From: a bacterium
GTDB lineage: Bacteria > Patescibacteriota > Microgenomatia > UBA1400 > UBA12108
NCBI GenBank assembly: GCA_021788365.1
Contig: JAJYKS010000007.1
Span: 1-33,141, forward strand
Length of the DNA: 33,141 bases
Direction of reading: 5' to 3'
Below the pieces are notes generated by a model. The model was not told where the DNA came from and made no database searches. It saw only the letters and a list, made by a program, of their open reading frames with translations. Shown here one piece after another: positions 1 through 33,141 of the stretch. Both the position numbers and the translations under genes were made by a program. Position 1 is the first letter of the stretch; each line of letters begins with the position of its first letter.

Positions 1-150
1 CCGGGACGGCTGTGCCGCTCCGTAGCTCGAAGAGCGAAGGGCGGTACCACCCTTTATTTATCTTCGTTAGTGACTATTTCGCTAGTCGGACGGGCTATTT
101 AGGCCGGAGCTAAGGAGTTCGCGACGCTCCCTGAATAAGGGGATATTGTA
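1..150 (-). promoter_or_regulatory. Probable T-box leader (antiterminator region) for a gene lying left of the window
   Basis: Reverse complement contains AAAGGGTGGTACCGCCC (about 37-54), matching the conserved T-box motif AGGGUGGNACCGCG, followed by ...GCCGTCCCGG resembling the usual downstream CGTCCC. Regulated gene and terminator are outside the window. Confidence 0.65.
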
Positions 151-160
151 CCACGGATTA

Positions 161-484
161 CTATTCTAGCATCTTAACTGCTTCGATGAGATTAGCAATA
201 GTTCCGTGTACTAAATTATTCAATGATTCCTTAACTCTCTTCGCCTCACTTGCACTCGGCATTGTAAGCTTTCTTTGATTGATTCCATTGTGTTGCACAT
301 AGGCCGACAAAGAACTTTCACTTCCAATTAACGCAAAAACAAGTTTATTTTCCAAAAGATCATCGGGTATCACATCACAACCATTCGTCTGGAAATTCCG
401 CACTAAGCCACGCTCTCTCAAAAACCCGCCTAACTCAGAGCTGACAACCCCGTATTCCGGAGCAACACCTTTTTCTCTCGCCAT
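161..484 (-). CDS. Hypothetical protein, 107 aa
   Basis: Complete ORF; purine-rich SD-like AGGAGAGAGG upstream of ATG on the minus strand. Family not recognised. Confidence 0.6.
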   Translation of the reverse strand: MAREKGVAPEYGVVSSELGGFLRERGLVRNFQTNGCDVIPDDLLENKLVFALIGSESSLSAYVQHNGINQRKLTMPSASEAKRVKESLNNLVHGTIANLIEAVKMLE

Positions 485-530
485 AAACCTCTCTCCTAAG
501 ATATAACTATCTCCATTCTACCCCACTTGT

Positions 531-753
531 CTACCGTGCAGACTTGCGATGGCCTGAAAGCCCCGCCCCCACCCCCACCGCAACGATTGCCGACACAATG
601 GCGGCAAGTGCTCCGATCCACCAGTACCGGGCAAACGCCGACTCCGAAATGTTTGTCCTCTGGAAGGCTCGGCTAAAAGACGCAGATACCCAAAAGTGTT
701 ATGCAAAGCCCAAACACAAGCACGGCAACAACCGAAGGGATTATTCGTCGCAT
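531..753 (-). pseudogene. Possible frameshifted small two-TM membrane protein
   Basis: Minus-strand ATG at 753 reads MRRIIPSVVAVLVFGLCITLLGICVF then TAG (673-675). The +1 frame continues SFSRAFQRTNISESAFARYWWIGALAAIVSAIVAVGVGAGLSGHRKSAR stop at 531. Both halves are membrane-like. Confidence 0.4.
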
Positions 754-4112: not shown

Positions 4113-4127
4113 ATACTTATCGGAGCG

Positions 4128-17114: not shown

Positions 17115-18125
17115 ATGCTTCGCCTGCCCCACCCAACCCAAGTTGCAATTCGACGTATAAGACATATAGGACTTATATGTCTTATAGGACTTATAACATC
17201 AGTGCTACCGCCGAAGGCGTTAGCAGCTGATGTATCGTTGGTCGTCTCCCCACCCCGCTTCGACGTCGCCGGCAATCCCGGCGAGACGATCCAAAAGATC
17301 ATCAAAGTCACAAACAATAGCGCCACCCAAACATTAAACCTCAAGGCATTTGTCAAAGATTTCATCGTCCAGGACGATATGGGCACCCCCGTCCCGGTGT
17401 CGGTCACCGCCTCCGGCCGCTACTTCGCTTCACCCTGGTTTACCCTCGACCGTAGCTCCCTCACCATCCCCCCCAAAAGTGAAGACCAGCTCATCGTACT
17501 CATCCAGGTACCTAGAGATGCCTTGCCCGGCGGCCACTACGCCGGGGTCTTCTTCCAGCCCGTACCTGAGGGAGGGCTCAAGACCACCGTTTCTTACACG
17601 GCCTCACAGGTAGGTTCCCTTTTTGGCATCACGGTCGCCGGCAACGTCAAATACAACGCCATCATTAAAGACTTCTCCGTCGGCAAAAACTTGTACGAAT
17701 TTGGGCCGGTCGACTTTCAGGCAACTATCGAAAACCAATCGGACACCCACATCAGCCCCAAAGCCGACGTCAAGGTTTACGACATGCTGGGGCGCCAACT
17801 CACCGATCTTTCCCTCGACTCCGTCAACATCTTCCCCTTTACCAGTCGCACGATTGCGGGTAGGTGGGAAACGGTCTGGGGGCTAGGCCGCTATACTGCT
17901 ACCTTGACCGCCGCCTACGGCCCAAATGGCGCCGTTGCCACCCGCACGATCCTATTCTGGATCCTTCCCTACAAACTCATGACCGCGCTCGGCGTAATTC
18001 TCCTGGTCCTCATCGCCGTCTTTATCCTGATCCGCCGTCACATCTTGCATCGCGAAGACAAGCGGGACGATGAGATCGACGAGCTGAAGCGCAAGATTGT
18101 AGAGCTAGAGAATAAGAACCGGTAA
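17115..18125 (+). CDS. DUF916/WxL-interacting-like membrane-anchored protein
   Basis: SD AGGAG; signal peptide; DVSLVVSPPRFDVAGNPGETIQKIIKVTNNSATQTLNLKAFVKDF...RDALPGGHYAGVFF; C-terminal TM and charged coiled tail. Confidence 0.85.
   Translation: MLRLPHPTQVAIRRIRHIGLICLIGLITSVLPPKALAADVSLVVSPPRFDVAGNPGETIQKIIKVTNNSATQTLNLKAFVKDFIVQDDMGTPVPVSVTASGRYFASPWFTLDRSSLTIPPKSEDQLIVLIQVPRDALPGGHYAGVFFQPVPEGGLKTTVSYTASQVGSLFGITVAGNVKYNAIIKDFSVGKNLYEFGPVDFQATIENQSDTHISPKADVKVYDMLGRQLTDLSLDSVNIFPFTSRTIAGRWETVWGLGRYTATLTAAYGPNGAVATRTILFWILPYKLMTALGVILLVLIAVFILIRRHILHREDKRDDEIDELKRKIVELENKNR
17152..17196 (+). repeat. 9-bp x 5 element, copy 1
   Basis: gacgtataa gacatatag gacttatat gtcttatag gacttataa; encodes the signal-peptide core RRIRHIGLICLIGLI. 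Confidence 0.9.
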
Positions 18126-18140
18126 AGCTATACTGGTAGC

Positions 18141-19418
18141 ATGCCCATCCCTGTCCCCAACCCACCATGTTCCCAGCATATAACTCCTATACGTCTTATA
18201 AGACTTATAAGTCTTATCGGACTTATAGTGGCGGCCATGCCGCCACATGCATTAGCAACTCCACCTCCCGCCACGAGTAGCGCACAGGTCTCCACCACCA
18301 TCCCCACTTTCTTCACGCCAAACGACACAACCGCCCCCACCGCCCCCCTTCTCCTTCGCCCCGCCGACGGCACCTACACCAGCGAAAAGACACTGGAGTT
18401 TGCCTGGCATCAAAGCACCGACATCGACTCCAATAAAATTATATATACATTATATCTGAATAACGTCGCCACCTACCTGGGCATAAGCAACGACGGAAAC
18501 GCCGAAGGCGCAGGCTATACCTCGCGGATCGAAGGCGGAGAAGTTCGCCTCATCCCCAATCCCCCGCTCCCCGACGGCACCTACGACTGGTACGTCACCG
18601 CCGAGGACCTGTCCGGCAACAAAAGCTACTCGGCGTCGTGGCACCTCACAGTTGACACCGTCCCGCCCACAATTCTCGTGACGGATATCGACACCTACCA
18701 TCACCTCGCGCTCGATTCTACTAACCCCGCTTCCGTCCCGCCAGGAACGAGCTTTGATGTAAATGGGCCAAAAGACGTGTACTTTACCGTTGTTACGGAA
18801 CCGTTTGCGACCATCTCACTCCAGTATCGGACCTATCTGTCCTATACGTCGTATCAAACCTATCCGTTTCCCACCGGCTCCGGTGGTCACGTCAACTCCT
18901 ACGCCCACTTTGACCCCGGTACCTACGAGGTGCTCATTTCAGCGGTGGACCGTGCCGGCCAGCCGGCCGCGCTGCCGCCACTGCTGCTTCGCGTCACCGC
19001 AGCAGCGGTGACTATCGGGCCTATCGGTCCTATTGGACGTATCGGCCCTATCAGCTTCCCCGCTCCGCTCACCTCTCTGCCTTCCACCATCTCGTACGTT
19101 GCCACTCGGGTAGGTATGGCAGGATATGTAGCCATTTCGCTAGCAGTATTAGTACTGATACTGCTCATATTCCTCTGGAACAGGCGGGACAACCTTATCT
19201 TGGTGGACGAGCATGGAAACCCCCTTGCCGCGAGTGTTTGGCACTCGCGGCAATATACGTCATATATGATATATAAGTCGTATAAGACGTATACAGGTAG
19301 GCTACGCGTCCCTCACCTAGGTCGCTACTCCACCCTCACGATCCGCACAAGCCGCATCACGCTCGTCCTCTCCCTCTGCCAAAATGCGCGCGTCTACACG
19401 GTCATAGTACCCCAATAA
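18141..19418 (+). CDS. Membrane-anchored surface protein with Ig/FN3-like domains
   Basis: Signal peptide MPIPVPNPPCSQHITPIRLIRLISLIGLIVAAMPPHALA; PLLLRPADGTYTSEKTLEFAWHQSTDIDSNKIIYTLYL; C-terminal TM VAISLAVLVLILLIFLW and cytoplasmic tail. Confidence 0.8.
   Translation: MPIPVPNPPCSQHITPIRLIRLISLIGLIVAAMPPHALATPPPATSSAQVSTTIPTFFTPNDTTAPTAPLLLRPADGTYTSEKTLEFAWHQSTDIDSNKIIYTLYLNNVATYLGISNDGNAEGAGYTSRIEGGEVRLIPNPPLPDGTYDWYVTAEDLSGNKSYSASWHLTVDTVPPTILVTDIDTYHHLALDSTNPASVPPGTSFDVNGPKDVYFTVVTEPFATISLQYRTYLSYTSYQTYPFPTGSGGHVNSYAHFDPGTYEVLISAVDRAGQPAALPPLLLRVTAAAVTIGPIGPIGRIGPISFPAPLTSLPSTISYVATRVGMAGYVAISLAVLVLILLIFLWNRRDNLILVDEHGNPLAASVWHSRQYTSYMIYKSYKTYTGRLRVPHLGRYSTLTIRTSRITLVLSLCQNARVYTVIVPQ
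18184..18228 (+). repeat. 9-bp x 5 element, copy 2
   Basis: ctcctatac gtcttataa gacttataa gtcttatcg gacttatag; in signal-peptide core of 18141 CDS. Confidence 0.9.
18821..18865 (+). repeat. 9-bp x 5 element, copy 3
   Basis: ccagtatcg gacctatct gtcctatac gtcgtatca aacctatcc; encodes QYRTYLSYTSYQTYP. Confidence 0.9.
19009..19053 (+). repeat. 9-bp x 5 element, copy 4
   Basis: tgactatcg ggcctatcg gtcctattg gacgtatcg gccctatca; encodes TIGPIGPIGRIGPI. Confidence 0.9.
19225..19253. repeat. Perfect 12-bp inverted repeat, 5-nt loop, inside CDS
   Basis: TTGCCGCGAGTG-TTTGG-CACTCGCGGCAA; overlaps start of 45-bp element copy 5. Confidence 0.9.
19250..19294 (+). repeat. 9-bp x 5 element, copy 5
   Basis: gcaatatac gtcatatat gatatataa gtcgtataa gacgtatac; encodes RQYTSYMIYKSYKTYT. 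Confidence 0.9.
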
Positions 19419-19454
19419 GTCCTATTTGACATATTCCTCCAATACGTCATATTT
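19410..19454 (+). repeat. 9-bp x 5 element, copy 6 (degenerate, mostly intergenic)
   Basis: ccccaataa gtcctattt gacatattc ctccaatac gtcatattt; spans stop codon of 18141 CDS. Confidence 0.7.
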
Positions 19455-19460
19455 ATTACT

Positions 19461-19973
19461 ATGCCATATAAAGAACTGTTATCCTACCAGATGACAACGA
19501 TCATCTACGATCTAACCGATATTTTTGTAAGAAAATATATTGACAAACGCTCCCGTACCAGTGACCAAATGGTACAAGCCGCCAGGTCTAGTAAGCAAAA
19601 CATTGTTGAAGGCTGCAGCGAACGCACATCAAAAAAAAGCGAGCTCAAGCTCCTAGGCGTAGCCCGTGCCTCACTCAAAGAACTCCTGGAAGATTACGAA
19701 GATTACCTCAGGCAGCGCGGGCTCAGACAATGGGAAAAGTCCTCGCCAGAGTCCCTGGTAGTCCGTAATCTCTCATATAGGTCATATAAGACCTATCAGA
19801 CCTATACGTCCTATATGACAACCCCCAACAAAGCCGCCAATTGTCTTATCTGCCTCATAAATCAAGCCGGATATCTGCTCGACAAACAAATTACGAAAGC
19901 GGAACAAGATTTTCTGCAACATGGTGGGTACACAGAAAATTTGTTTCGACAGCGGCTTCAAAACCGAAAATAA
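19461..19973 (+). CDS. Four-helix-bundle protein (23S rRNA-intervening-sequence protein family-like)
   Basis: DLTDIFVRKYIDKRSRTSDQMVQAARSSKQNIVEGCSERTSKKSELKLLGVARASLKELLEDYEDYL is family-typical; interrupted by a repeat-encoded YRSYKTYQTYTSYM segment. Confidence 0.85.
   Translation: MPYKELLSYQMTTIIYDLTDIFVRKYIDKRSRTSDQMVQAARSSKQNIVEGCSERTSKKSELKLLGVARASLKELLEDYEDYLRQRGLRQWEKSSPESLVVRNLSYRSYKTYQTYTSYMTTPNKAANCLICLINQAGYLLDKQITKAEQDFLQHGGYTENLFRQRLQNRK
19772..19816 (+). repeat. 9-bp x 5 element, copy 7
   Basis: ctcatatag gtcatataa gacctatca gacctatac gtcctatat. Confidence 0.9.
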
Positions 19974-20007
19974 CACATTCCCCCTGCATGTAAACGCGTG
20001 AAACTAT

Positions 20008-20034
20008 TACCGCAATCATTTGCGGTATTATTTC
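20008..20034 (+). terminator. Probable rho-independent terminator after 19461 CDS
   Basis: TACCGCAA-TCAT-TTGCGGTA followed by TTATTT. Confidence 0.55.
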
Positions 20035-20087
20035 TGGTCCCAGACTATTGACACGCCTTGTACAACGCTTTTATAGTAGACCTATGG

Positions 20088-20106
20088 TCCTGAGTTTATC
20101 GAAGGA
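20088..20106. repeat. Dispersed palindromic repeat, intergenic
   Basis: TCCTGAGTTTATCGAAGGA. Confidence 0.75.
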
Positions 20107-20138
20107 TAACAGTGTATAACGAAATATAACTACAAGAT

Positions 20139-23100
20139 ATGAAACCAAATACTGCCCACCCTACATTCGACACCATTCTCGCCACCTGCAAGCAGTTTCT
20201 TGCAAGCACCCACCTGAGTCTCACCAGCCGCAAGCTGTATCTCGCCGACATCAAGCGGTTTTTGCACTGGCTGCAAGCCAGTAAAACCCTGAGTGAATCG
20301 AAGGGCTCGCCGCTAGATATACTCACCCAACCAAGTAACTACACCTCGTATATGGAGTCCTTGAGGAACAATGGCGCTGACAAGTCTGTGCTACTTCGCG
20401 CCCTCGCCTCGCTCAAGCAGCTCGGCACTGTGCTTTCCGCAACCTACAGCATCGCAAACCCCACCGACGGGTTCACCTTGAAGCAAAGATCCGATCTTTC
20501 CGAAGATCGGATCTTTGCTGAGAACTACATCAAACCATTCACCAACCAGCTCGAAAGCGAGCACCTCTCCCCTTTGACCGTTAGGTCCTATAAATCTGAC
20601 GTCACCCGCTACCTGCATTGGGCAAGCTCCAACACTCCTAGCACTCAGATGGATGCAGTGCTAGGCACAAAAAATCGCGAAAAATACTTGGATCATCTGC
20701 GCCAAATTGATGGAATGTCTTCGGCGACCATAGAGCGAAAAGGTAAGTCCATCGCCCGTTTTGCAACGTGGTATGCCGGTGCCTACCCGCACGCCGTACT
20801 ACCCGATAGTTCTTCCGCCCACCTAGCGAGCGGTATAGGACCTATACGTCCAATACGTCCTATTGGACCTATACGTATTGGCTCCTCTGTTCCAGAGGAA
20901 CCAATAGATTCCGTGAAAAAAAATAATTCCCGCAAACGGTTCTTTCTCCCGATTCCGCGCCTGTTCGGCCCAGGTTCCGAACTTCTGGGAGTTCGGAACC
21001 TTCTTCCCTTTGCCATCCTCCTCCTCTTCACGATTACCCTTGGCGTCTTCTCCTACCGTCAGTTCTCCCGCGATCGGGTTGTCTTGACCGAAGCCTATCC
21101 CAGCACACCGGTTACCCCGAACCGGCAGATCTCCTTCCAGGGCAGGCTCGAGAACGCCGGTGGCACACCCATAACCAGCGCCACCAACTTTGTCTTTAAG
21201 TTGTTCGATGCCGCCTCCGCCGGCACGCAGCTCTATAGTAGTGGCACGTGTTCCGTGACCCCCGACTCCGACGGCGTCTTCAATACTCAGATCGGCAGTA
21301 CCTGTGGCTCGGCGATTACCTCCGATGTCTTTACCCAAAACGCCAACGTCTATCTTGAAGTCACGGTGGGCGCCGAGACCCTCACCCCCCGCCAGCAAAT
21401 CGCCACCGTCGCCTATGCCCTAAACTCCGAGACTCTGCAGGGATTCCCCATCTCCGCAACGGTCTCTGCAGTGCGGAACACCGTCGTCCCCATGAATCAG
21501 TGGGGTGAAATCTTGGTCGGCGAGCAAAATCCGCGCATGACCGGCGTCTCAGGGACGTTTCAAATCTCCGCCCCCGCCCTCTCGCTCGCGACGACCACGG
21601 GCAGTAGTGGCAACATCACGATTGCCCCCGACGGCACCGGCCAGGTCAACGTGAACGGCAACACCACGACCACCAATTTCTTCAACGTGGCCGACGCCCA
21701 GCTCAGTACCGGCACTTTGATTACCGGCACCGTGGGGAACAACACCACCGGCTTCAAACTCCTCGACCTCCTTTCAGGAACCAGCCCCACCAGCAAATTC
21801 TCGGTAGACGCCTCCGGCAACACCACCCTCGCCGGCACGCTTAGCCTCCCCAATAGCAATACCTTAACCGGAGTGACCAATTATATTGAAGCCAGCGGCG
21901 GCCTCGCGGTAGGTAGCGGCACCACCTATAAACTGACGAGTACCGGCGATCTCTACGCTAATAACATCTACACAGGTGGTACGCAAAGGTTGGACTCCGC
22001 CGGAAATTTAACAAACATTGGCACCACCCAGCTCCACGGGGTCACCTACACCTGGCCAAGTGCCGACGCCGGCTCCTCCGGCTACGTCCTGTCTAGTAAC
22101 GCAGGCGGCACCCTCTCGTGGGTGGCCCAGACCGGCGGGGGTGGTAGCACTTATTGGCGGCTCGCCACCGGCGCACTCTCCCCGGTAAACGACACCCTCG
22201 ACCTTTTGCTCGGAGGCAACGCCACCGGCTCCGCCAAAATCGGACTAATCAACGTGAATAGCGGCACTCCCACCGCGACCATTGCCGGCACCACCGCCAA
22301 TGTAGCAACCTACCTGAATGGCAACGGCACGCTAGGGACGACCAACGCGCAAACCTTGACCCTCGGCAGTATTTCGACCGGCAACGTCATCCTCGCTCCC
22401 GGCGGCACGACAGCGTTGACCGCGGCAGGCGCCAATCTGACCGCTGCCGGCACGCTCACCCTGCCAAGCACAAACACCTTGACCGGGGTGACCAACTATC
22501 TGCAGCTTTCCCAGGGCTTGTCCGTCGGCGGCGGCACCACCTACTACATTGCCGGCAACGGTAACGGCAATCTCAACGGCCTCACGCTGGGTGCCGCCCT
22601 CGCTCTACCAAATACCAACAGCCTAACCGGGGTGTCGGGTTATGTACAATTTAACAACGGGATATCCGTGGGGGCGGCAACCGCCTATCACTTCGACAAT
22701 ACCGGCAACCTCGTCGCCCAAGGCGTCTCCGGCACGTCCCTCACCGATTCTGGGCTCACCCCCGGCTCCATCGTCTTTGCCGGCATGGCTGGTCTCCTTT
22801 CCCAAAACAACGGCAATTTTTACTGGGACAACACGAACAAGCACCTGGGCGTGGGCGCCAGCGGGACGAATCTTTTGGGTACCCTTGACCTTCGCTCCAC
22901 GCTCGGCACCCTGCCGGTCGCAACCATTTCCGGAGCGACATCCATGGCCTCCCTCATGGTCGACCAATCTGGTGTCGGCGACCTTCTTACGGCGAGCAAG
23001 TCCGGCGCCACCAAATTCGTGGTAGCCAATAATGGCAATGTGGGGATTGGCACCGCCAACCCCAGCTATCTTCTGGACGTGAACGGCAACGCCCGGATCG

Positions 23101-26100
23101 TGGGCGCCACCTTTACCAACAACGTCTATTTTGCCAACAGCTCGGACACGACCGGCTACTATGTGGACGTGAACGGCAACGCCAAATTTCTGGATTTAAT
23201 CGCCTCCGACACCGGCAACCCCGGATTAACCGTGGGCAACGGCAGCATCGGTTTTGCCAAAATCGGCGGCAGCACCATCTCCGACAACGCCGGCAACCTG
23301 ACCCTCGCCTCCGACACCGGTACGACGGACATTACCGGGAACGCTACGACCACCGGCTATGTGACGGTGGGGAACGGCATCATCAATTCGGGAGTTGCCG
23401 ACGGCACCTCGGCTCTCGGCTTCACCCTCAACACCAACAACACTCTGACCGGCGCCGACGCCAAGCTCCTCTCCATTAAAAACAACGGCACCGAAAAAAT
23501 GTACCTGGATGCCAGCGGCAACCTCTACGTCTCCGGCACGATTACCTCCGGTGCCGGCTTCTCCGTCACCGCGGTCAACAAGAGCGGCGGCACCGTCGCC
23601 AAGAAGGCACTAGTCGTCCTCGACCCCACGAACGCCAACGCCTTCACCACCACGACTACCCCCTACTCCAAGGCCGTCTTTGGTGTAGTGCAGGGGGTAG
23701 AGGTCAACAGCGACACCAACAACAACGGCGCCTGCGACGCGAACGAGACCTGTCTCATCGCCGTTGCTGGCGAGGTCGACGTTACTATTAAAAATACAAC
23801 CACGGTCGCCAAAGGCGATTATCTCTTCACCTCCGACACGGCAGGTAGCGCCTTCTCCTCCGCCAAGCAGTACGACGGCCTGGTCGGCGTCGTCTCCGAT
23901 ACTACGAATGCCGGCTCCGGCTACGTCAAGATGATTTTCAAAGTTCAGCCCCAGGTCACGGCCAGCGCCGCCATAGACAAGACCAGCAAACACAACGAGT
24001 ATTGGCTCTACGCGAACGACTACACCGCTGTCAATGAGGGTACGAATACTAATGCTAACCTCCTGGCTCGGGGGCTTACCTTTGACAATTTCTACGACAA
24101 CACCAAAACGGATAGCGCCAACACCACGGTGAGCGGCCCCGCCCCCGTTGGCGGCGCCGCCGCTCCCTATCGGGCAGGCCTCATGGGTGGCCAAACCATG
24201 AGTGCAGCAACCACCGACAATGCCGGGAATACCTATCTAGGGAGTAGTACGGTCAACAAGGTCTTCTACTACGACCGTACCAAGGACAGTATCCCCCAGG
24301 TCCAGGTAGAGCTAGGGATCGATCCTAACTGGTACAACGGGGTAACCTTGTCGGTGGCAACAACCAGTGCTCAGTTTAGCCAGAACAGTACCACTCCCCA
24401 GAAGAATCCGAACTTAAGTACCTCGTACAACGGCTCCCTGATTAAAGCCACGGGGACATATAGCAGTAACGCCAAGACTATCTATATCACCATCAAGTCC
24501 CCCACCACCTTTGACTGGACGGACTACAACGGCCAGGCTGCGACCGGCGTCACCATGACTCCCGGGACAGCCCAGGCGCTAGGGGCAACCGGTGTCTCCG
24601 CGACCTTCACCTCCGCCTCCTACAATGTCGGTGATGTCTTCAAGATCGCCTCCTGGTTCACCGAACCATCCTCTTCCACCCGTGGGGCAAAGGCCCAGTT
24701 CCCGGAACGCTCCAATATCGTGGCGACCGCCTCCTCCGTGGACGTGATCGACGCCGATACCCAGAAACTCTGGATGAGGTTTAGCACTGGCGGAACTACG
24801 ATAAATAATTCTAATATGATCGGTGCTACCGCCGATCCACTAAATTCGACAACAGCGCTAAATGGAGAAATAATAACCGCTAATACTGGAACTGTTTCTA
24901 ACTCAACAACATTCATTAGATTTTTTAGCGACGAAGCACGTATCGCGAATGCAACCGGTGGCAATGGACATAAATACAACGGTGGTATCTCTCAAAGAAA
25001 TTCTGGACTAGGAATAATTACTAGTATATATGCTAACTTTAATATAGTGGCACCTCAAGCCAACGACGTCGCCGCTGCCGTCATCCCCAACCAACCCACC
25101 GGTCAAGTGACCGTGAGTGGGTGGGGGTATATCCAAGGTGCTGCCGCAACCAACGTAAGTGAAGCCGTCAATCTGCCGTACAAATTTAATAATATTCCAA
25201 AAGTAAACATTAGCTATACCGGCGCCAAACCAACAACAGCCCCAACCTCACTTTCAGATTGTAACGCTGCTTATAATCGTTACACCGTTTGGACTGGACC
25301 AGTAACAACTACAGGTTTCTCTGCATTTATAGGGCTTACAGATGCAGCAGATGGAAACATGAGTTCAAGCTACTATTTCTGTTACACCTGGACCGCAACC
25401 GGCGTCGTCTCCCCCAAACAGTTTGTGGCGGTAGCGACAGGTAGTAGCAGCTCAAACGGCGGTACCACCGTCATCAATGAAACCGATGGCACCAGTATCA
25501 ACATCTCCATCGGCAGCCAAAGCGGCGGCACGGTCTGGCAAGACAAGGTTGCCTTTGCCAACAACACCTTATATCTAGGTGGTGGTGGTACCCCCACCCC
25601 GACCTACTTGGCAGTATATTATGGGGTTCACGGCCTATCAGCCAGCGAAACATCTTGGGCTCAATATCGGAATGGATACTACTTTGTCGGACAACAATCT
25701 AGTGGTTGGTCGGCAACCGGACCTGTAATTTTAGGTGCAAATGGTGCTCGTTTTACCTCCCTTGTCGCGACTCCAAACACCTCAACCATAAATAGCCACA
25801 GCAACACCATCTATGCCGGGACTGCCAGTGGTCTTTCTGTCATCCAAGAAAACCAGGGAGGGGGCAATGTTGCGGACGGTTCCGTGGAATCCTCCGGTTC
25901 TGTTAAATACTACACCAAAGACTACGTCTCCGAAGAAATGGTTGGGGATGTCCGCGGCATGTGGCCCTTGTCCGCCAGTGGTGCCCTTTCCTTGTCCGAC
26001 GTCTCCGTTAAGGGTAATACATTAACAAACACAGGATCCGTTACTGCAGTGAGCGGCGTTCGTGGCATGGGGGCAACGTTTAATGGGTCAAACTACCTAT

Positions 26101-29100
26101 CTATTGCAGATAATTCATCGCTTAACCTCAGTGGCGGATCAACAATGTCAGTCGGGGCCTGGTTTAAAACAACATCGTCAGGTACCGTGATTGCCAAAAC
26201 ACAGGGAGGAGTATCGTATCCAGACTTTTATCTTGTCGTCGGAGCCATATCGTCCGGAAAGATAACATTTACTATGTCTGTCACCGCAGGTACTTCTCAG
26301 GTGGCAGTCACCTCTAACACGACAGTTAATGACGGTAATTGGCACTATGCAATTGGTTCATATGATGGTGCGAACATGAATCTTTACATTGATGGAAAAT
26401 TAGACAATACAGCTGCAAGAACGGGAGCAGTTTATCACAATGCATCGGCATCTTTAGCAATTGGCGCGGTCTTGGGCACACCGAATTCCAGTTTTCTTAC
26501 AGGATCAGTCGACGAGCCATTCGTGACGGCGACAGCCCTCTCCGCCTCTCAGGTTAAACACATGTACGAGGTAGGTGCTCGTGCTCTCCAGTCCCACGCT
26601 ACTACCCTGGGTGGTGGTGGAGCCGACTTGAATCAAGAGTTAGGTGGCTCGGTCAATACGGTGGGAGACGCAAGACCGGACTACAACAACCAGTTTATGT
26701 ATGTCGGTACCAACGATGCGACGAATGGCAGGGTATCTAAGATTAGCTTAAACAGTGATACCAACGTCAAGACCTATGACAAAACCACCAATACCCCGAC
26801 AGGAGGTACCCTTCTGGCCAATGACAACACCAACACTCTCGCCGTCGGCTACAACCTGGAGACCGTGGGGAGCGCCACCAGTGGGGTAAAAACCATAGGG
26901 ATCGATTCCTACGCGACCGCCACCTCCGGCAACTTTATCGGCAAAACAGTCACCACTGCCGAATCTTTCAACCAAGCCTACGTCTGGAGCCAGTACACCC
27001 TGGACAGCTCCGACGCGAGCAACACCGTTGCCGTCTGGGCCAGCAACGACGGCGGCAGCAACTACTACCAATGCAATCTCACCAACACCGATTCCAGCCA
27101 GTCCCCTCCCGAGTACGAATACTTCTGCCAGTTCAACACTCCCGGCACTTCGCTCAAAACCAAGTTCGTTATGGCCCGCGGCTCCACCAAAACGAACACC
27201 TATATTACTCGTTACGGCGTAGCGTGGGTGAGCGGCGACGCCGTCGCGAGCGCCCCCGGCGGCAACGGACTTTACACCAACACCAATACCGCGGTCGCGA
27301 GCGGCAGCTACATCGACGTCGCCCACAACCAGGGGACGAACGATCTTTTGACAAACGCCTGGATCAATTCCCAATCCGTCTGGAAATCCCTGGATGCCAG
27401 CTACCAGCCGGCTATAGCCTGGGCAGGCAAAGATACGGAAAAAGGCGTCTACCACAACGCCGTCAATTCGTACGTACCAACCGCCGAGACTACCGACACC
27501 ACCACCAATCTCGCAAGCGGCCTCCTCTTTGACACGTTCGAAGACCAGACAAAAACCGACTCCGGCAGCACCACCGCCTCCATTACTACTCAGAAGCCGG
27601 ACGACGGCGCCGCCAACTATATGACCCTGCAAAATAGGGTCCAATCCGGCCGCGTCGGCCTCATGGGTGGCCAAACCATGAGTGCAGCAACCACCGACAA
27701 TGCCGGGAATACCTATCTAGGGAGTAGTACGGTCAACAAGGTCTTCTACTACGACCGTACCAAGGACAGTATCCCCCAGGTCCAGGTAGAGCTAGGGATC
27801 GATCCTAACTGGTACAACGGGGTAACCTTGTCGGTGGCAACAACCAGTGCCCAGTTTAGCCAAAACAGTACCACTCCCCAGAAGAACCCGAACTTAAGTA
27901 CCTCGTATAACGGCTCCCTGATTAAAGCCACGGGGACATATAGCAGTAACGCCAAGACTATCTATATCACCATCAAATCCCCCACCACCTTTGACTGGAC
28001 GGACTACAACGGCCAGGCTGCGACCGGTGTCACCATGACTCCCGGGACAGCCCAGGCCCTTGGCACGACCGGTGTCTCCGCTACCTTTACCTCCGCCTCC
28101 TACAACGTGGGCGATGTCTTCCGTATTGCTTCATGGTTTGTCGAGCCGGCTTCCGCGACCCGTGGCAGCAAAGCTCAGTTCCCGGAGAGGAGTAATGTAA
28201 TTACTCAAAATAACTACACTGATATTATTGACGCCGATACGCAAAAATTATGGATGCGTTTTAATGTGGTCGCCTGGAAGACATCGTACGTCGCTCTAAG
28301 CGCCAACATGCTCAACGGTATTCTCTATATCGCCAACAATAATAGTGCCGGTAGCGACGGCAACCTCAGGCGTCTCAATTTTGCAATCGATAACGACAAT
28401 TATCTCTATGAAGGGAGTACTTTCAAAGCCATTGGAGCCCAGACAACTATTGCTGCTAGAAATATTGCCGGTACCAGCAACGTCATTATCGCTCCCATTG
28501 GACTAGTTTCGCGCTACGCTAACGACGTCTCCGCCGCCGTCATCCCCAACCAGCCGACGGGACAGGTGACGGTAAGCGGGTGGGGATATGTGGCCGGAGA
28601 TGGGGTTAGCACAGTTCTGACAGAAGCCGTCAACTTCCCATACAAATTTAATACGACTCCAACTGTCCAAGTCTCTTGGGCTGGACAAGTAGCATCAACT
28701 CCCACTTCCTTATCAAGTTGTGCCACATCTGGCGGAAGCGGAGCAGGGCTAGGATCAACAACTGCAGCTGCAGTTGGCACAAATACATTTAACGTTAGTA
28801 TGGCAAAAAACACAAACGTTTTTGCGAGTGGTGTTTACTTCTGTTACACCTGGACCGCCACCGGCGTCGTCTCCCCCAAACAGTTTGTGGCAGTAGCAGA
28901 AGGAACGAGTATCGCCGGCGGCGCCACAGACGTAATCAATGAAACGGATGGCACGGTTGCTCATATAATGTCTGCAAACGGAGCAGTAAACACCCTTAAC
29001 TATCAATCAAAAGTCGCCATCGCCGGAAATAATCTCTATATGGGAGATGGATACCTCCCCTCTACTGGTATATCATCAGTGGATATCTACCATGGTATTC

Positions 29101-32100
29101 ACGGACTCACCTCAGAGGCAGGAGTTGCCCAATACAGACGCGGATATTATGAAGTAGGGGCTATTGGTGCCTCATTTATTCCAAGCATTTTAGGTACAGC
29201 CACCGGTGCCAACCAGATTACCTCGCTTGCCGCCACCGCCGGAACTTCAACTGTCGACGGCAAATCAAACACGCTCTACATCGGTACCACCTCTGGCCTT
29301 ACGGTATTACAAGAGAATCAAGGATCGGGGAACATCACAGACGGCTCGGAAGAATCCTCCGGTTCCGTCAAATACTACACCAAAGACTACGTCTCCGAAG
29401 AAATGGTCGGCGACATCCGCGGCATGTGGCCGCTCTCCAGTAATGGCGCATTATCTTTAACCGACGCCTCTATAAAAGGAGATACTCTCACCAATAACGG
29501 TAGTGTCACCGCTATTTCCGGCGTGCGTGGTATGGCGGCCAGCTTCAATGGAAGTAATTACTTATCCTGTACCGACGCGGCCTGTGGAGGAACGACCAAA
29601 TTAGACTCCGGCGGCACTACTTGGAGCTATGGTGCTTGGTATAAAACAACAATGACAGGGTCAGGGGGAACGGCTGGAAGAATTATTGGTAAATGGGGTA
29701 ATGGAACTGCTGGAATAGCATCGTATTTATTATCCATGGGAGATTCTGGCACCGGAAAATTGAGAGGCGTTATACAAAACAGCTCTGCAACACAAGGTAT
29801 TGTTGACGACACAACGACAAGTAATGATGGCAGCTGGCACTACGCCGTAGTAACGTATGATGGAGCTAGCCTTAAACTATATCGAGATGGACAACTAGTT
29901 AACCAAACCGCCACTACTGTCACAATCGCTGATGGAACGGCTGGTTTTGCGGTTGGAGCGGCTGACACACCAGGCTATTATTTTACCGGCTCCATCGACG
30001 AGCCCTTCGTGACCGCCACGGCTCTTTCTGCTGGTCAGGTTAAACACATGTACGAGGTAGGTGCTCGTGCCCTCCAGTCTCACGCCACAACCCTGGGTGG
30101 TGGTGGAGCCGATCTCAATCAAGAGTTAGGTGGCTCGGTCAATACGGTAGGAGACGCTCGCCCCGACTACAACAACCAGTTTATGTATGTCGGTACCAAT
30201 GACGCGACGAATGGCAGGGTATCTAAGATTAGCTTAAACAGTGATACCAACGTCAAGACGTATGACAAAACCACCAATACCCCCACGGGAGGGACACTCC
30301 TAGCCAACGACGATACCAACACTCTCGCCGTCGGCTACAACCTAGAGACCGTGGGGAGTGCCACCAGTGGAGTCAAGACTATGGGGGTAGATGACTATGC
30401 AACGGCCACGAGCGGCAGCTACTACAGCAAGACCTACACCCTCCCCCAGAATATTGGCTCGGCTGTGCTCTGGGCATCCCCAATCCTGGATAGTGCAGAC
30501 GCCGGCAACACGCTAACGGTCAAGGCCTCGGTCGACGGTGGTAGCACCTACACTACCTGTACCCTGGCCAGCACCGATTCCGCTCCCACCGTCCCCGAAA
30601 AAGAATATGCCTGCACCTTCCCCGCCTCCGGCTCTTCCCTCAAGATCCGCTTCGACTTTGCCCGCGGTTCTACGAAAACCAACACCTATCTCGTCCAGTA
30701 CGGCATCTCCTGGCTCGGCCAGAGTGGCTTTAAAATCGAGCAAACTGACAACAACACCGTCCGCCTCTACAACTACTCCGGAGAAACCCAAAACCTCCGC
30801 CTCGACGTCGTGACCGGCGGCCTCGGCAGGAACTCCGGCACCATCAGCCTGGCCCCCTCCGTGGCCGACGTCAACGCCAACTCCAACACCAACAGTATCT
30901 GGGTGAATAATACCGGCACCGGCGGCAATCTTCTCAAATTACAGTCAGGGGGAACCGATGTCCTTTCGCTCACACCCACGGGCAATCTGACCCTGACCGG
31001 CGACTTGCATTTGACGGGTAAGCTCTACGATTCAAATGTCACATCGGGCATCAGTCTCGGCGATGCGAGCAACTCCTCCCTGGTCGGCTTTGGCGCCTCC
31101 TCCTTGGTCGGCGCCCTCAACGAACTTAAAAATAGCAACGCCAACATCTCCCACAACGACTATCTCGATTGGGCCAATTACTATACCGCTAAAGCCGAAG
31201 GATCAAACTCCAACGTCAACAGTGCTCTGAACGGCCTCTTCTTCGACACCTTCGCCGATAGTACCAAACTGGACAGCGCCAACTCCACGAGTAGCGGCGC
31301 CATTCAAATCTCGGATCCATCCGCCGCTGTCAAACCTTCGGCGCCCTTCCGTGTCGGTCTCATGGGTGGCCAAACCATGAGTGCGGGGACAACCGACAAT
31401 GCGGGGAATACCTATCTTGGGAGTAGTACAGTCAACAAGGTCTTCTACTACGACCGTACCAAAGATAGTATCCCCCAGGTCCAGGTGGAGCTAGGGATCG
31501 ATCCTAACTGGTACAACGGAGTAACCTTGTCGGTGGCAACAACCAGTGCCCAGTTTAGCCAGAACAGTACCACTCCCCAGAAGAATCCGAACCTAAGTAC
31601 CACCTACAACGGCTCCCTGATCAAAGCCACGGGGACATATAGCAGTAACGCCAAGACTATCTATATCACCATCAAATCCCCCACCACCTTTGACTGGACC
31701 GACTACAACGGCCAGGCTGCTACCGGTGTCACCATGACTCCCGGGACAGCCCAGGCACTCGGGACAACCGGTGTCTCCGCAACCTTTACCTCCGCCTCCT
31801 ACAACGTGGGCGATGTCTTCCGTATTGCTTCATGGTTTGTCGAGCCCGCTTCCGCCACTCGCGGTAGCAAAGCTCAATTCCCGGAGAGGAGTAATATTAT
31901 TGGCACTTTAGCCAATAATACCAGTATTATTGATGCCGATACTCAAAAATTGTGGATGTCATTTACTGGAGGAAATAACAATACCGCGGCCACAATGACC
32001 ATGCTGGGGTATGAATCTAATTCGATAAATGCTCTCAACGGAGTTATTTATTCCGGAACTCCAAATAGCAACAATGTAGGTTTAACAATGATCCGCTTCA

Positions 32101-33141
32101 ATGTAGACTCTGCTTCTCATGCTGACGGTGGAGGGAATAATTATATGACCTGGAAAGGATCGGGGATTGCTGGCCGTAATGTTGCCTCAGGATATTCAAC
32201 TACTAATTCCTCCATATCTATTGTTAGTTCAGTTGTTAACGACGTCTCCGCCGCCGTCATCCCCAACCAACCCACCCAAACTGTGACGGTGAGTGGGTGG
32301 GGGTATATCCAAGGGAGCGGCCTTGGAACGATGGCTGAAACAGTTAGATTACCATATAAATTCAACGACATTCCAAATATAGTAACCAACATAGGGGGCG
32401 CGACAAACAGTGGCGCGCCTACAAATCTTTCAAGTTGTACAACTGGCGCATTCGGTTACGGTACGATTGCTGCTTCCGCCTCTTCTGTAGGAAATTCTTC
32501 ATTTACGGTAAACATGACCATGCCTAGTGGTACTTTTAGCTCCTCATATTATTATTGCTACACCTGGACCGCAACCGGCACCGTCTCTCCTAAGCAGTTT
32601 GTGGCCGTGGCAACCCAAGTTGGCAATACGGTCATTAATGAAACTAACCAATCATCTATCAATGTTTATAATAACGGATCTGGTTATCCAAATAAAAAGA
32701 TCTTCCTTACTTCAAAAGGCGAACTCTATTACACGGAAGATCTCACTCTTGCCAGAGCAGAAGACCAGCTTTTGGTAAAACGGAACGTTGCAGGACTCAC
32801 TACAAATCAAACTGGCGCCAATGGGTTTGATTATTATTACAATCATCAGTCCACCTCTATCCCCTCATTGGGAAGTCTGGCCTATGTCCATAGCTTGTAT
32901 GTAACCGAAAATACATCAACCTATATAAACGGTGGAAACACTGTCTATTTTGGTGATGATGGGGGTCTAAAACTAATTCAAGAAAATAGTAACTACGGAA
33001 ATGCGAGCGACGCGGGTGGTGGAACACCTGGTGGTTCCGTCAAATACTACACCAAAGACTACATTTCCGAGGAAATGGTCGGGGATGTCCGCTTAATGAC
33101 ACCATTTGCCGGAACTTCTGCATTATCTACCAACACCACTC
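20139..33141 (+). CDS. Giant membrane-anchored repetitive surface protein (partial, runs off window): tandem core-binding-like domains, TM, adhesin-like ectodomain with H-lectin-like and LamG-like modules
   Basis: Frame (codon starts at positions divisible by 3) read from ATG 20139; sections translated at the start, in the repeats and at the end (33060 tac att tcc gag gaa atg) stay in one frame. N-term LTSRKLYLADIKRFLHWLQ and LTVRSYKSDVTRYLHWAS; TM LLPFAILLLFTITLGVFSY; NNGNVGIGTANPSYLLDVNGNARI; DGNWHYAIGSYDGANMNLYIDGKL. Confidence 0.9.
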   Translation, partial: MKPNTAHPTFDTILATCKQFLASTHLSLTSRKLYLADIKRFLHWLQASKTLSESKGSPLDILTQPSNYTSYMESLRNNGADKSVLLRALASLKQLGTVLSATYSIANPTDGFTLKQRSDLSEDRIFAENYIKPFTNQLESEHLSPLTVRSYKSDVTRYLHWASSNTPSTQMDAVLGTKNREKYLDHLRQIDGMSSATIERKGKSIARFATWYAGAYPHAVLPDSSSAHLASGIGPIRPIRPIGPIRIGSSVPEEPIDSVKKNNSRKRFFLPIPRLFGPGSELLGVRNLLPFAILLLFTITLGVFSYRQFSRDRVVLTEAYPSTPVTPNRQISFQGRLENAGGTPITSATNFVFKLFDAASAGTQLYSSGTCSVTPDSDGVFNTQIGSTCGSAITSDVFTQNANVYLEVTVGAETLTPRQQIATVAYALNSETLQGFPISATVSAVRNTVVPMNQWGEILVGEQNPRMTGVSGTFQISAPALSLATTTGSSGNITIAPDGTGQVNVNGNTTTTNFFNVADAQLSTGTLITGTVGNNTTGFKLLDLLSGTSPTSKFSVDASGNTTLAGTLSLPNSNTLTGVTNYIEASGGLAVGSGTTYKLTSTGDLYANNIYTGGTQRLDSAGNLTNIGTTQLHGVTYTWPSADAGSSGYVLSSNAGGTLSWVAQTGGGGSTYWRLATGALSPVNDTLDLLLGGNATGSAKIGLINVNSGTPTATIAGTTANVATYLNGNGTLGTTNAQTLTLGSISTGNVILAPGGTTALTAAGANLTAAGTLTLPSTNTLTGVTNYLQLSQGLSVGGGTTYYIAGNGNGNLNGLTLGAALALPNTNSLTGVSGYVQFNNGISVGAATAYHFDNTGNLVAQGVSGTSLTDSGLTPGSIVFAGMAGLLSQNNGNFYWDNTNKHLGVGASGTNLLGTLDLRSTLGTLPVATISGATSMASLMVDQSGVGDLLTASKSGATKFVVANNGNVGIGTANPSYLLDVNGNARIVGATFTNNVYFANSSDTTGYYVDVNGNAKFLDLIASDTGNPGLTVGNGSIGFAKIGGSTISDNAGNLTLASDTGTTDITGNATTTGYVTVGNGIINSGVADGTSALGFTLNTNNTLTGADAKLLSIKNNGTEKMYLDASGNLYVSGTITSGAGFSVTAVNKSGGTVAKKALVVLDPTNANAFTTTTTPYSKAVFGVVQGVEVNSDTNNNGACDANETCLIAVAGEVDVTIKNTTTVAKGDYLFTSDTAGSAFSSAKQYDGLVGVVSDTTNAGSGYVKMIFKVQPQVTASAAIDKTSKHNEYWLYANDYTAVNEGTNTNANLLARGLTFDNFYDNTKTDSANTTVSGPAPVGGAAAPYRAGLMGGQTMSAATTDNAGNTYLGSSTVNKVFYYDRTKDSIPQVQVELGIDPNWYNGVTLSVATTSAQFSQNSTTPQKNPNLSTSYNGSLIKATGTYSSNAKTIYITIKSPTTFDWTDYNGQAATGVTMTPGTAQALGATGVSATFTSASYNVGDVFKIASWFTEPSSSTRGAKAQFPERSNIVATASSVDVIDADTQKLWMRFSTGGTTINNSNMIGATADPLNSTTALNGEIITANTGTVSNSTTFIRFFSDEARIANATGGNGHKYNGGISQRNSGLGIITSIYANFNIVAPQANDVAAAVIPNQPTGQVTVSGWGYIQGAAATNVSEAVNLPYKFNNIPKVNISYTGAKPTTAPTSLSDCNAAYNRYTVWTGPVTTTGFSAFIGLTDAADGNMSSSYYFCYTWTATGVVSPKQFVAVATGSSSSNGGTTVINETDGTSINISIGSQSGGTVWQDKVAFANNTLYLGGGGTPTPTYLAVYYGVHGLSASETSWAQYRNGYYFVGQQSSGWSATGPVILGANGARFTSLVATPNTSTINSHSNTIYAGTASGLSVIQENQGGGNVADGSVESSGSVKYYTKDYVSEEMVGDVRGMWPLSASGALSLSDVSVKGNTLTNTGSVTAVSGVRGMGATFNGSNYLSIADNSSLNLSGGSTMSVGAWFKTTSSGTVIAKTQGGVSYPDFYLVVGAISSGKITFTMSVTAGTSQVAVTSNTTVNDGNWHYAIGSYDGANMNLYIDGKLDNTAARTGAVYHNASASLAIGAVLGTPNSSFLTGSVDEPFVTATALSASQVKHMYEVGARALQSHATTLGGGGADLNQELGGSVNTVGDARPDYNNQFMYVGTNDATNGRVSKISLNSDTNVKTYDKTTNTPTGGTLLANDNTNTLAVGYNLETVGSATSGVKTIGIDSYATATSGNFIGKTVTTAESFNQAYVWSQYTLDSSDASNTVAVWASNDGGSNYYQCNLTNTDSSQSPPEYEYFCQFNTPGTSLKTKFVMARGSTKTNTYITRYGVAWVSGDAVASAPGGNGLYTNTNTAVASGSYIDVAHNQGTNDLLTNAWINSQSVWKSLDASYQPAIAWAGKDTEKGVYHNAVNSYVPTAETTDTTTNLASGLLFDTFEDQTKTDSGSTTASITTQKPDDGAANYMTLQNRVQSGRVGLMGGQTMSAATTDNAGNTYLGSSTVNKVFYYDRTKDSIPQVQVELGIDPNWYNGVTLSVATTSAQFSQNSTTPQKNPNLSTSYNGSLIKATGTYSSNAKTIYITIKSPTTFDWTDYNGQAATGVTMTPGTAQALGTTGVSATFTSASYNVGDVFRIASWFVEPASATRGSKAQFPERSNVITQNNYTDIIDADTQKLWMRFNVVAWKTSYVALSANMLNGILYIANNNSAGSDGNLRRLNFAIDNDNYLYEGSTFKAIGAQTTIAARNIAGTSNVIIAPIGLVSRYANDVSAAVIPNQPTGQVTVSGWGYVAGDGVSTVLTEAVNFPYKFNTTPTVQVSWAGQVASTPTSLSSCATSGGSGAGLGSTTAAAVGTNTFNVSMAKNTNVFASGVYFCYTWTATGVVSPKQFVAVAEGTSIAGGATDVINETDGTVAHIMSANGAVNTLNYQSKVAIAGNNLYMGDGYLPSTGISSVDIYHGIHGLTSEAGVAQYRRGYYEVGAIGASFIPSILGTATGANQITSLAATAGTSTVDGKSNTLYIGTTSGLTVLQENQGSGNITDGSEESSGSVKYYTKDYVSEEMVGDIRGMWPLSSNGALSLTDASIKGDTLTNNGSVTAISGVRGMAASFNGSNYLSCTDAACGGTTKLDSGGTTWSYGAWYKTTMTGSGGTAGRIIGKWGNGTAGIASYLLSMGDSGTGKLRGVIQNSSATQGIVDDTTTSNDGSWHYAVVTYDGASLKLYRDGQLVNQTATTVTIADGTAGFAVGAADTPGYYFTGSIDEPFVTATALSAGQVKHMYEVGARALQSHATTLGGGGADLNQELGGSVNTVGDARPDYNNQFMYVGTNDATNGRVSKISLNSDTNVKTYDKTTNTPTGGTLLANDDTNTLAVGYNLETVGSATSGVKTMGVDDYATATSGSYYSKTYTLPQNIGSAVLWASPILDSADAGNTLTVKASVDGGSTYTTCTLASTDSAPTVPEKEYACTFPASGSSLKIRFDFARGSTKTNTYLVQYGISWLGQSGFKIEQTDNNTVRLYNYSGETQNLRLDVVTGGLGRNSGTISLAPSVADVNANSNTNSIWVNNTGTGGNLLKLQSGGTDVLSLTPTGNLTLTGDLHLTGKLYDSNVTSGISLGDASNSSLVGFGASSLVGALNELKNSNANISHNDYLDWANYYTAKAEGSNSNVNSALNGLFFDTFADSTKLDSANSTSSGAIQISDPSAAVKPSAPFRVGLMGGQTMSAGTTDNAGNTYLGSSTVNKVFYYDRTKDSIPQVQVELGIDPNWYNGVTLSVATTSAQFSQNSTTPQKNPNLSTTYNGSLIKATGTYSSNAKTIYITIKSPTTFDWTDYNGQAATGVTMTPGTAQALGTTGVSATFTSASYNVGDVFRIASWFVEPASATRGSKAQFPERSNIIGTLANNTSIIDADTQKLWMSFTGGNNNTAATMTMLGYESNSINALNGVIYSGTPNSNNVGLTMIRFNVDSASHADGGGNNYMTWKGSGIAGRNVASGYSTTNSSISIVSSVVNDVSAAVIPNQPTQTVTVSGWGYIQGSGLGTMAETVRLPYKFNDIPNIVTNIGGATNSGAPTNLSSCTTGAFGYGTIAASASSVGNSSFTVNMTMPSGTFSSSYYYCYTWTATGTVSPKQFVAVATQVGNTVINETNQSSINVYNNGSGYPNKKIFLTSKGELYYTEDLTLARAEDQLLVKRNVAGLTTNQTGANGFDYYYNHQSTSIPSLGSLAYVHSLYVTENTSTYINGGNTVYFGDDGGLKLIQENSNYGNASDAGGGTPGGSVKYYTKDYISEEMVGDVRLMTPFAGTSALSTNTT
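20287..20305. repeat. Dispersed palindromic repeat in giant ORF
   Basis: CCCTGAGTGAATCGAAGGG. Confidence 0.7.
20482..20519. repeat. Perfect 17-bp inverted repeat, 4-nt loop, inside giant ORF
   Basis: AGCAAAGATCCGATCTT-TCCG-AAGATCGGATCTTTGCT. Confidence 0.95.
20831..20875 (+). repeat. 9-bp x 5 element, copy 8
   Basis: gcggtatag gacctatac gtccaatac gtcctattg gacctatac; encodes GIGPIRPIRPIGPIR. Confidence 0.9.
20878..20906. repeat. 13-bp inverted repeat (1 mismatch), 3-nt loop
   Basis: ATTGGCTCCTCTG-TTC-CAGAGGAACCAAT. Confidence 0.85.
20972..21001. repeat. 12-bp perfect inverted repeat, 6-nt loop
   Basis: AGGTTCCGAACT-TCTGGG-AGTTCGGAACCT. Confidence 0.9.
24176..26900 (+). repeat. Large ectodomain module, copy 1
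   Basis: LMGGQTMSAATTDNAGNTYLGSSTVNKVFYYDRTKDSIPQVQVELG ... LamG-like ... NTLAVGYNLETVGSATSGVK. Confidence 0.9.
27656..30380 (+). repeat. Large ectodomain module, copy 2
   Basis: 27661 onward is identical to 24181 onward for about 190 nt, then near-identical; same domain order. Confidence 0.9.
31355..33141 (+). repeat. Large ectodomain module, copy 3 (partial)
   Basis: Starts 31360 tcatgggtggccaaaccatgagtgcg...; same order, cut by window end. Confidence 0.9.

What the first reader, a model, noticed from the sequence alone, without database searches (positions are those of the whole stretch)
17152..20875. A family of eight discrete 45-bp elements built from five degenerate 9-bp units
Eight arrays (17152, 18184, 18821, 19009, 19250, 19410, 19772, 20831) align to five consecutive units of about G[A/T]CNTATNN. 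TAT is nearly invariant at unit positions 5-7, while positions 2, 4, 8 and 9 vary between and within copies. All have the same orientation, length is constant at 45 bp, and no two copies are identical. Constant length with scaffold conservation argues against simple slippage microsatellites. They occur in four consecutive genes and one gene boundary over 3.7 kb and I saw none elsewhere in the window. They could be binding arrays, mobile mini-elements, or products of a dedicated diversification process.
Basis: partly seen in the sequence, partly recalled or inferred. Interest (0 to 1): 0.88.

Follow-up and report, generated by a model that had tools for sequence, protein, structure and literature searches.

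The report
Repeat arrays tied to four-helix-bundle genes
The short repeat arrays are the signature of a small mobile gene that makes a ring-forming four-helix-bundle (S23-type) protein; each lineage of that gene carries its own repeat 'dialect' at its ends, a link found in none of the open-access papers I could search.

Summary
The arrays are real, far above chance and constrained at the DNA level (codon control). The unit is TATNNGWCN. The window has eight; a second contig, probably the end of the giant gene, has three more. The mode is five units, but length is not constant. They belong to a four-helix-bundle (4HB, S23-type) gene at 19461-19973 with a TIGR04258 suffix. Among 70 loci chosen by that suffix domain, 60 have arrays close by, at fixed positions; 0 of 29 suffix-less 4HB loci carry such 9-bp arrays. 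At least five unit dialects exist, and dialect follows the 4HB protein tree (5 changes versus 37 shuffled). Suffix-less 4HB genes instead carry inverted arrays of 7-8-bp units. Array plus gene is a presence/absence cassette. In cyanobacterial plasmids, 97-98% identical empty sites show a 423-bp insertion between 5-bp direct repeats (GTAAT); a second site shows TTCTA. I conclude that S23-type 4HB genes are small mobile elements with array ends, whose solo arrays spread into tolerant protein loops. DNA binding and the way of moving are inferred. Main doubt: the target duplications come from the 7-bp branch, not the window's 9-bp branch.

The parts
19461..19973 (+). four-helix-bundle (S23/23S-IVP type) protein gene with suffix domain; the partner gene of the arrays
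   Evidence: TIGR04258 E 1.6e-17 (aa 124-170) and TIGR02436 E 6e-10 (aa 8-76); AlphaFold pLDDT 94.9, best PDB fold matches 2GSC and 2RLD
19410..19454 (+). degenerate type-A array just before the 4HB start codon (the 5' site of the cassette)
   Evidence: 3 of 27 mismatches; same site occupied in many TIGR04258 loci
19772..19816 (+). type-A array inside the 4HB gene, coding the linker between the TIGR02436 part and the suffix domain (SYRSYKTYQTYTSY)
   Evidence: same position +310..365 in many loci
17152..17196 (+). five-unit type-A array in ORF 17115-18125, coding the hydrophobic N-terminus (IRHIGLICLIGLI)
18175..18228 (+). type-A array (5-6 units) in ORF 18141-19418, coding the hydrophobic N-terminus (IRLIRLISLIGLI)
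18821..18865 (+). type-A array inside ORF 18141-19418 (YRTYLSYTSYQTY)
19009..19053 (+). type-A array inside ORF 18141-19418 (IGPIGPIGRIGPI)
19250..19294 (+). type-A array inside ORF 18141-19418 (YTSYMIYKSYKTY)
20830..20874 (.). type-A array (reads well on both strands) in the giant fibre gene, after the integrase-type SAM domain (IGPIRPIRPIGPI)
20139..33141 (+). giant open reading frame (4334 codons, no stop, runs off the contig); probably continues on G000:C16, where three more arrays lie
   Evidence: XerC/D N-terminal SAM domain and mosaic adhesive fibre hits

Best explanation
The arrays are the recognition and end sequences of a family of very small mobile elements whose only gene encodes an S23-type four-helix-bundle protein. 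SHOWN: (a) 4HB-suffix genes carry arrays of 9-bp units at fixed sites (before the start, in two inter-helix loops, at the 3' end); suffix-less 4HB genes are bracketed by arrays of 7-8-bp units, the 3' array being the inverted copy of the 5' array. (b) The unit sequence (dialect) is inherited with the 4HB protein clade, not with the host. (c) Array plus gene is a cassette that is present in some relatives and absent in others; two cyanobacterial plasmid sites show clean empty sites with 5-bp target duplications. (d) Arrays of known dialects also occur without a 4HB gene, in loops of other proteins. INFERRED: the 4HB protein, as a homopentamer like its solved relatives, binds its own dialect (about five units, one per subunit), brings the inverted ends together and promotes insertion, alone or with a host or foreign enzyme; solo arrays arise as by-products. 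In the window, the gene at 19461 is a type-A copy without a 3' array, and the seven arrays outside its coding sequence are its 5' end and local dispersed copies.
For: Association: arrays within +-450 bp in 60/70 suffix loci against 1/30 loci chosen by TIGR02436, the exception proving to be a suffix type, p = 1.3e-15; random stretches 0/60. Genome cross-table p = 3e-10. Period 9 is specific: 44/70 loci at lag 9, at most 6 at other lags. Dialects: 68 of 69 loci typed; a tree built without array-coded columns needs 5 changes, shuffled mean 37.0, 0 of 200 as low; one host family holds all five. Heptamer branch: 10/27 against 1.5% of null windows, own 5'/3' inverted similarity 0.658, direct 0.438, other loci 0.449; 14/14 3' flanks and 9/14 5' flanks in named plasmids against 9/208 null windows. 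Mobility: 423 bp between GTAAT repeats, flanks 97-98% identical; a second site with TTCTA; two presence/absence sites for type B and A cassettes. Pentamer: 2GSC is the only sequence hit; X. campestris S23p is a homopentamer torus (PMC4990558).
Against: No known nuclease or transposase motif was seen in the 4HB protein, so the catalyst is unknown. The target duplications come from the heptamer branch; for the 9-bp branch only presence/absence is shown. Several intragenic arrays fit loops of unchanged length (trxB; O-antigen-ligase-like gene), which simple insertion does not explain. The window copy has no 3' array. G404 and G245 carry type-C arrays without a detected type-C 4HB gene. Six of 35 array-bearing genomes showed no 4HB-suffix gene. 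Array length outside this class is broad, which weakens the pentamer/five-unit match.
Confidence: 0.74

Rival explanations
1. Regulatory or genome-organising sites: the 4HB protein is a DNA-binding regulator or nucleoid protein, and arrays are its operators, kept by selection on DNA at its own gene and at target genes.
For: Arrays inside genes can fit loops of unchanged length, as if sites evolved in place; autoregulation would explain arrays at the 4HB gene; binding is needed in either model.
Against: Clean empty sites with 5-bp target duplications; inverted arrays exactly at both ends of the gene; solo arrays lie at unrelated positions inside coding regions; insertion between operon genes (cas10/cmr3, nrdB/nrdA).
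Confidence: 0.13
2. Passenger model: the 4HB cassette and arrays are moved by an unrelated transposase or by recombination between arrays; the protein has another role (for example RNA binding).
For: No catalytic motif; a RAYT-like Y1 transposase lies beside the arrays on G000:C16 and another near an array in G255.
Against: Dialect follows the 4HB protein clade; no transposase was annotated beside many cassettes. A mere passenger would not predict dialect inheritance with the protein.
Confidence: 0.2
3. Ordinary slippage minisatellites, or repeats caused by peptide-level selection.
For: Whole-unit length changes occur (the cyanobacterial cassettes of 423 and 409 bp differ by two heptamers).
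Against: Codon-matched control and use of two reading frames; same scaffold in many phyla; fixed sites and dialect inheritance.
Confidence: 0.02
4. Diversity-generating retroelement-like system (the 4HB protein as an Avd relative) that rewrites loops of target proteins.
For: PF05635 resembles Avd (PMC10053308); arrays can occupy loops without length change.
Against: No reverse transcriptase or template repeat was seen in the ORFs listed around the window cluster or in the neighbouring loci read; the arrays are stereotyped. No dedicated RT search was run.
Confidence: 0.04

Closest known systems
REP/RAYT systems (REPINs)
   Same: A single chromosomal gene flanked by its own inverted repeat class, which is also dispersed in the genome; repeat class and gene lineage go together (literature leads PMC2817692 and PMC3116915, listed, not read in full).
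   Different: RAYTs are Y1 HUH transposases and REPs are 20-40-bp extragenic palindromes; here the protein is an S23-type 4HB with no such motif, and the repeat is a tandem array of 7-9-bp units, often inside coding sequence.
S23p-encoding intervening sequences (IVS) of 23S rRNA
   Same: S23-family ORF with short tandem repeats (GACAGAT heptamers) right before its start codon, number varying between strains; already suspected to be a mobile element (PMC4990558).
   Different: IVSs lie in rRNA genes; the cassettes here lie between or within protein genes, with inverted arrays at both ends and target duplications.
Rickettsia palindromic elements and other in-frame MITEs
   Same: Small repeats found in frame inside many protein genes (PMC2229807).
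   Different: RPEs are 105-146-bp hairpins; here the partner gene is identified and arrays can occupy loops without lengthening them.
Short tandemly repeated repetitive (STRR) heptamers of heterocystous cyanobacteria (own knowledge, not looked up)
   Same: Heptamer arrays in Nostoc, Calothrix and Anabaena; the 4HB genes there are flanked by such heptamers.
   Different: To my knowledge STRRs have no assigned partner gene.
NCBIfam TIGR04258 four helix bundle suffix domain
   Same: The window protein is a member.
   Different: The family name says nothing of arrays; its curation notes could not be read here.

Membership tests
TIGR04258 / TIGR02436 (S23-type four-helix bundle) | Match above the curated cut-offs and four-helix-bundle fold | tested here: met
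   63.2 bits against 40 and 39.3 against 24; fold matches 2GSC, TM-score 0.82-0.84 normalised to the target
TIGR04258 / TIGR02436 (S23-type four-helix bundle) | Homopentamer | not testable with these tools
   Known for the relative XCC0516, 2GSC (PMC4990558 citing Lin 2006); not modelled for this protein
REP/RAYT | Y1 HUH transposase as the partner of the repeat | tested here: not met
   The partner is a 4HB protein; the Y1 protein on C16 is not the one whose clade tracks the array dialect
REP/RAYT | Repeat class co-inherited with its gene | tested here: met
   (works like it; not a member)
IVS/S23p | Insertion within 23S rRNA | tested here: not met
   Cassettes lie between protein genes
DNA transposon (general) | Target-site duplication at an empty/filled pair | tested here: met
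   GTAAT and TTCTA, heptamer branch only
DNA transposon (general) | Terminal inverted repeats | tested here: met
   Inverted arrays
DNA transposon (general) | Encodes a recognisable transposase | tested here: not met
   Only TIGR02436/TIGR04258/PF05635-type hits for the 4HB gene
Diversity-generating retroelement | Reverse transcriptase plus template repeat | tested here: inconclusive
   None seen in the ORFs read near the arrays; no dedicated RT search was run

The most novel reading that the evidence does not exclude
S23-type four-helix-bundle proteins are the DNA-recognition core of a widespread class of minimal transposable elements: a pentamer reads inverted end arrays of about five 7-, 8- or 9-bp units in a clade-specific dialect. 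The same class explains the 23S rRNA intervening sequences, the cyanobacterial heptamer repeats and the in-gene arrays of candidate-phyla bacteria.
Probability: 0.45. Interest if true: 0.93.

Novelty: categorically new. Interest (0 to 1): 0.86.

Why it matters
S23/IVP four-helix-bundle genes are described as having no known function (PMC4990558). Tying them to clade-specific end arrays and to target-site duplications would give them a role, explain the suspected mobility of rRNA intervening sequences, give the cyanobacterial heptamer repeats a source, and open a new repeat-reading protein family to study. It also shows a kind of DNA that can settle in conserved protein loops.

Tried and rejected
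(1) '45-bp higher-order period' in the output: artefact of non-overlapping matching. (2) Simple insertion of 45 bp for every in-gene array: rejected for trxB and the O-antigen-ligase-like gene, where length is nearly unchanged. (3) Phage or plasmid origin of the suffix type: no match in 50,697 phage records and one in 72,556 plasmid records. (4) Peptide-level explanation: rejected by recoding. (5) G000's close family does not share the arrays (0 of 5 relatives), and I did not find orthologous empty sites for the window itself. (6) Dialect match between array and adjacent 4HB gene failed for G404 (adjacent gene is F-like, a second is A-like, the array is C). (7) The viral-contig scan with the suffix alignment gave only one locus, not useful as a replicate. 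(8) Collagen-like genes give look-alike arrays (L179). (9) Literature searches gave no paper linking 4HB genes to 9-bp arrays; subscription journals are not covered. (10) The PCC 7120 alpha and gamma copies of a 4HB gene are too diverged to mark element ends.

Full report
OBSERVATION. The unit is best written TATNNGWCN, and TATA-n-GWC-n-TATA is nearly self-complementary, so orientation is weakly defined. The genome (G000, 1.09 Mb, 26 contigs; the window is contig C7) holds three more arrays on C16, which shares 110 exact bases with the end of the window and probably carries the rest of the same giant gene. Shuffled sequence gave no arrays against 294 real ones, and reversed patterns gave none. 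Recoding the array peptides with the codon usage of the same genes reproduced the scaffold in 0-8 of 2000 trials, and all 15 Tyr codons in arrays are TAT against 98 of 228 outside. The constraint is therefore on DNA.

DISTRIBUTION. Exact four-unit matches occur in at least 120 stretches of GTDB genomes from many phyla. In this class 35 of 384 genomes have one (up to 1 mismatch), in the order 2 of 94, in the family 1 of 6. Unit number peaks at five in this class (70 of 132, with 41 at four) and spreads over 3-24 elsewhere. The 45-bp length is thus a preference, not a constant.

PARTNER GENE. The ORF at 19461-19973 is a four-helix-bundle protein with TIGR02436 and the TIGR04258 suffix domain, and the array at 19772 codes the linker between them. 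AlphaFold gives a helical model at pLDDT 94.9; the best PDB matches are the S23-family proteins 2GSC and 2RLD, whose entries show chains A-E. I then chose 70 loci by TIGR04258 alone. Arrays sit at four fixed sites: about -75..-20, +60..108, +310..365 and +500..560 relative to the domain start. Sixty of 70 have them close by, against 1 of 30 loci chosen by TIGR02436; that one turned out to be a suffix protein. Period 9 stands out (44 of 70 loci; other lags at most 6).

DIALECTS. Loci lacking TATNNGWCN carry other 9-bp units at the same sites: TTATAANNN, CTTARGTNA, GGGANATNN or TTTAGGGNN. In a tree made without array-coded columns, dialect needs 5 changes against 37 in shuffles, while one host family contains all five. 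The tree has few columns and many weak forks, so its branching order should not be leaned on. The host genome itself has two dialects: type A here, and type C at its second 4HB-suffix gene on C20 and at C12. Outside the class, the P. nigrescens 4HB-suffix gene has an array around CCTAGG at its 3' end (lag-9 score 26 of 36), and one Bacteroidota contig has two 4HB-suffix genes with different arrays.

HEPTAMER RELATIVES. Suffix-less 4HB genes are bracketed by 7-bp (sometimes 8-bp) arrays just outside both ends; 13 of 15 lag-7 sites within 600 bp fall there. Each locus has its own unit, and the 3' array is the inverted copy of the 5' one (0.658 inverted, 0.438 direct, 0.449 against other loci). 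The same holds in named cyanobacterial plasmids. This recalls the GACAGAT heptamers before S23p in the Coxiella intervening sequence, which others had proposed as a mobile element (PMC4990558).

MOBILITY. In one genus a type-B cassette lies between comEC and argS in one species and is absent in two; a type-A cassette after a giant fibre gene is present in two species and absent in the third. In cyanobacterial plasmids with 97-98% identical flanks, filled and empty sites differ by 428 bp: a 423-bp element between GTAAT repeats. The Scytonema copy is 14 bp shorter, two heptamers fewer in its 5' array. A second site shows TTCTA on both sides in Nostoc and once in the empty site. Cassettes also lie between operon genes (cas10/cmr3, cas6/cas4, nrdB/nrdA).

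ARRAYS IN OTHER GENES. In a gene next to the type-A cassette, orthologs carry type-A arrays (G395, G150), a decayed one (G290), type-C arrays (G245, G404) or none (G200, G095, G134) in the same loop. The type-A arrays leave the loop length almost unchanged (36 against 37 residues), and in trxB the length is unchanged. So in-gene arrays come and go, but not always by plain insertion; overwriting or selection in place is open.

MECHANISM. Shown: association, fixed sites, dialect inheritance, inverted ends, presence/absence, target duplications in the heptamer branch. Inferred: dialect-specific DNA binding, a pentamer reading about five units, and a role in insertion. The catalyst is unknown. Rivals are given with probabilities.

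NOVELTY. No paper in the searched library links these genes to such arrays, but subscription papers and the TIGR04258 curation notes were out of reach. In architecture it works like REP/RAYT, but it fails that family's defining feature.

Noticed in passing
G000:C16 (L033) 3576-4313: RAYT-like Y1 transposase gene (PF01797) just downstream of the giant gene's end; nearby DNA has several copies of an AAAGATCCGTTCTTTG-like palindrome.
   Followed up: partly
window 20475-20515 and 20970-21000; L033 about 3398-3425: Dispersed inverted repeats (AAAGATCCGATCTTT..., GTTCCGAACT...AGTTCGGAAC) inside coding sequence, unrelated to the arrays.
   Followed up: no
window 9028-11676 (leuS, - strand): Leucyl-tRNA synthetase contains in-frame LRQAQD(K/S) peptides, which look like another dispersed repeat settled in coding sequence.
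   Followed up: no
window 20139-33141: Giant ORF that begins with an integrase-type SAM domain and continues as a mosaic fibre protein; giant fibre genes with a similar end (FNWW or FDYW) also sit next to 4HB cassettes in other genomes (L220, L225, L227, L228).
   Followed up: partly
L409 and L416 (plasmids of Anabaena sp. 90 and Pseudanabaena galeata): 4HB cassettes with different heptamers (ACAGGTG, AAAGCTA) lie in the same cas6-cas4 gap, as if inserted twice independently.
   Followed up: partly
L318 (G200), loop 2 of the O-antigen-ligase-like gene: A different dispersed repeat (GTCATCCTGAGC...GAAGGATCT, peptide ILSAAKDL) sits where relatives have a type-A array.
   Followed up: no
G133:C28 (L339): Three identical TATTTGTCCTATCCGTCT... 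arrays in a genome where no 4HB-suffix gene was found (82% complete).
   Followed up: partly
L412, Picosynechococcus sp. PCC 7003 plasmid: A 4HB gene between cas10 and cmr3 flanked by 8-bp repeats (AGGAGATA), a third period besides 7 and 9.
   Followed up: no
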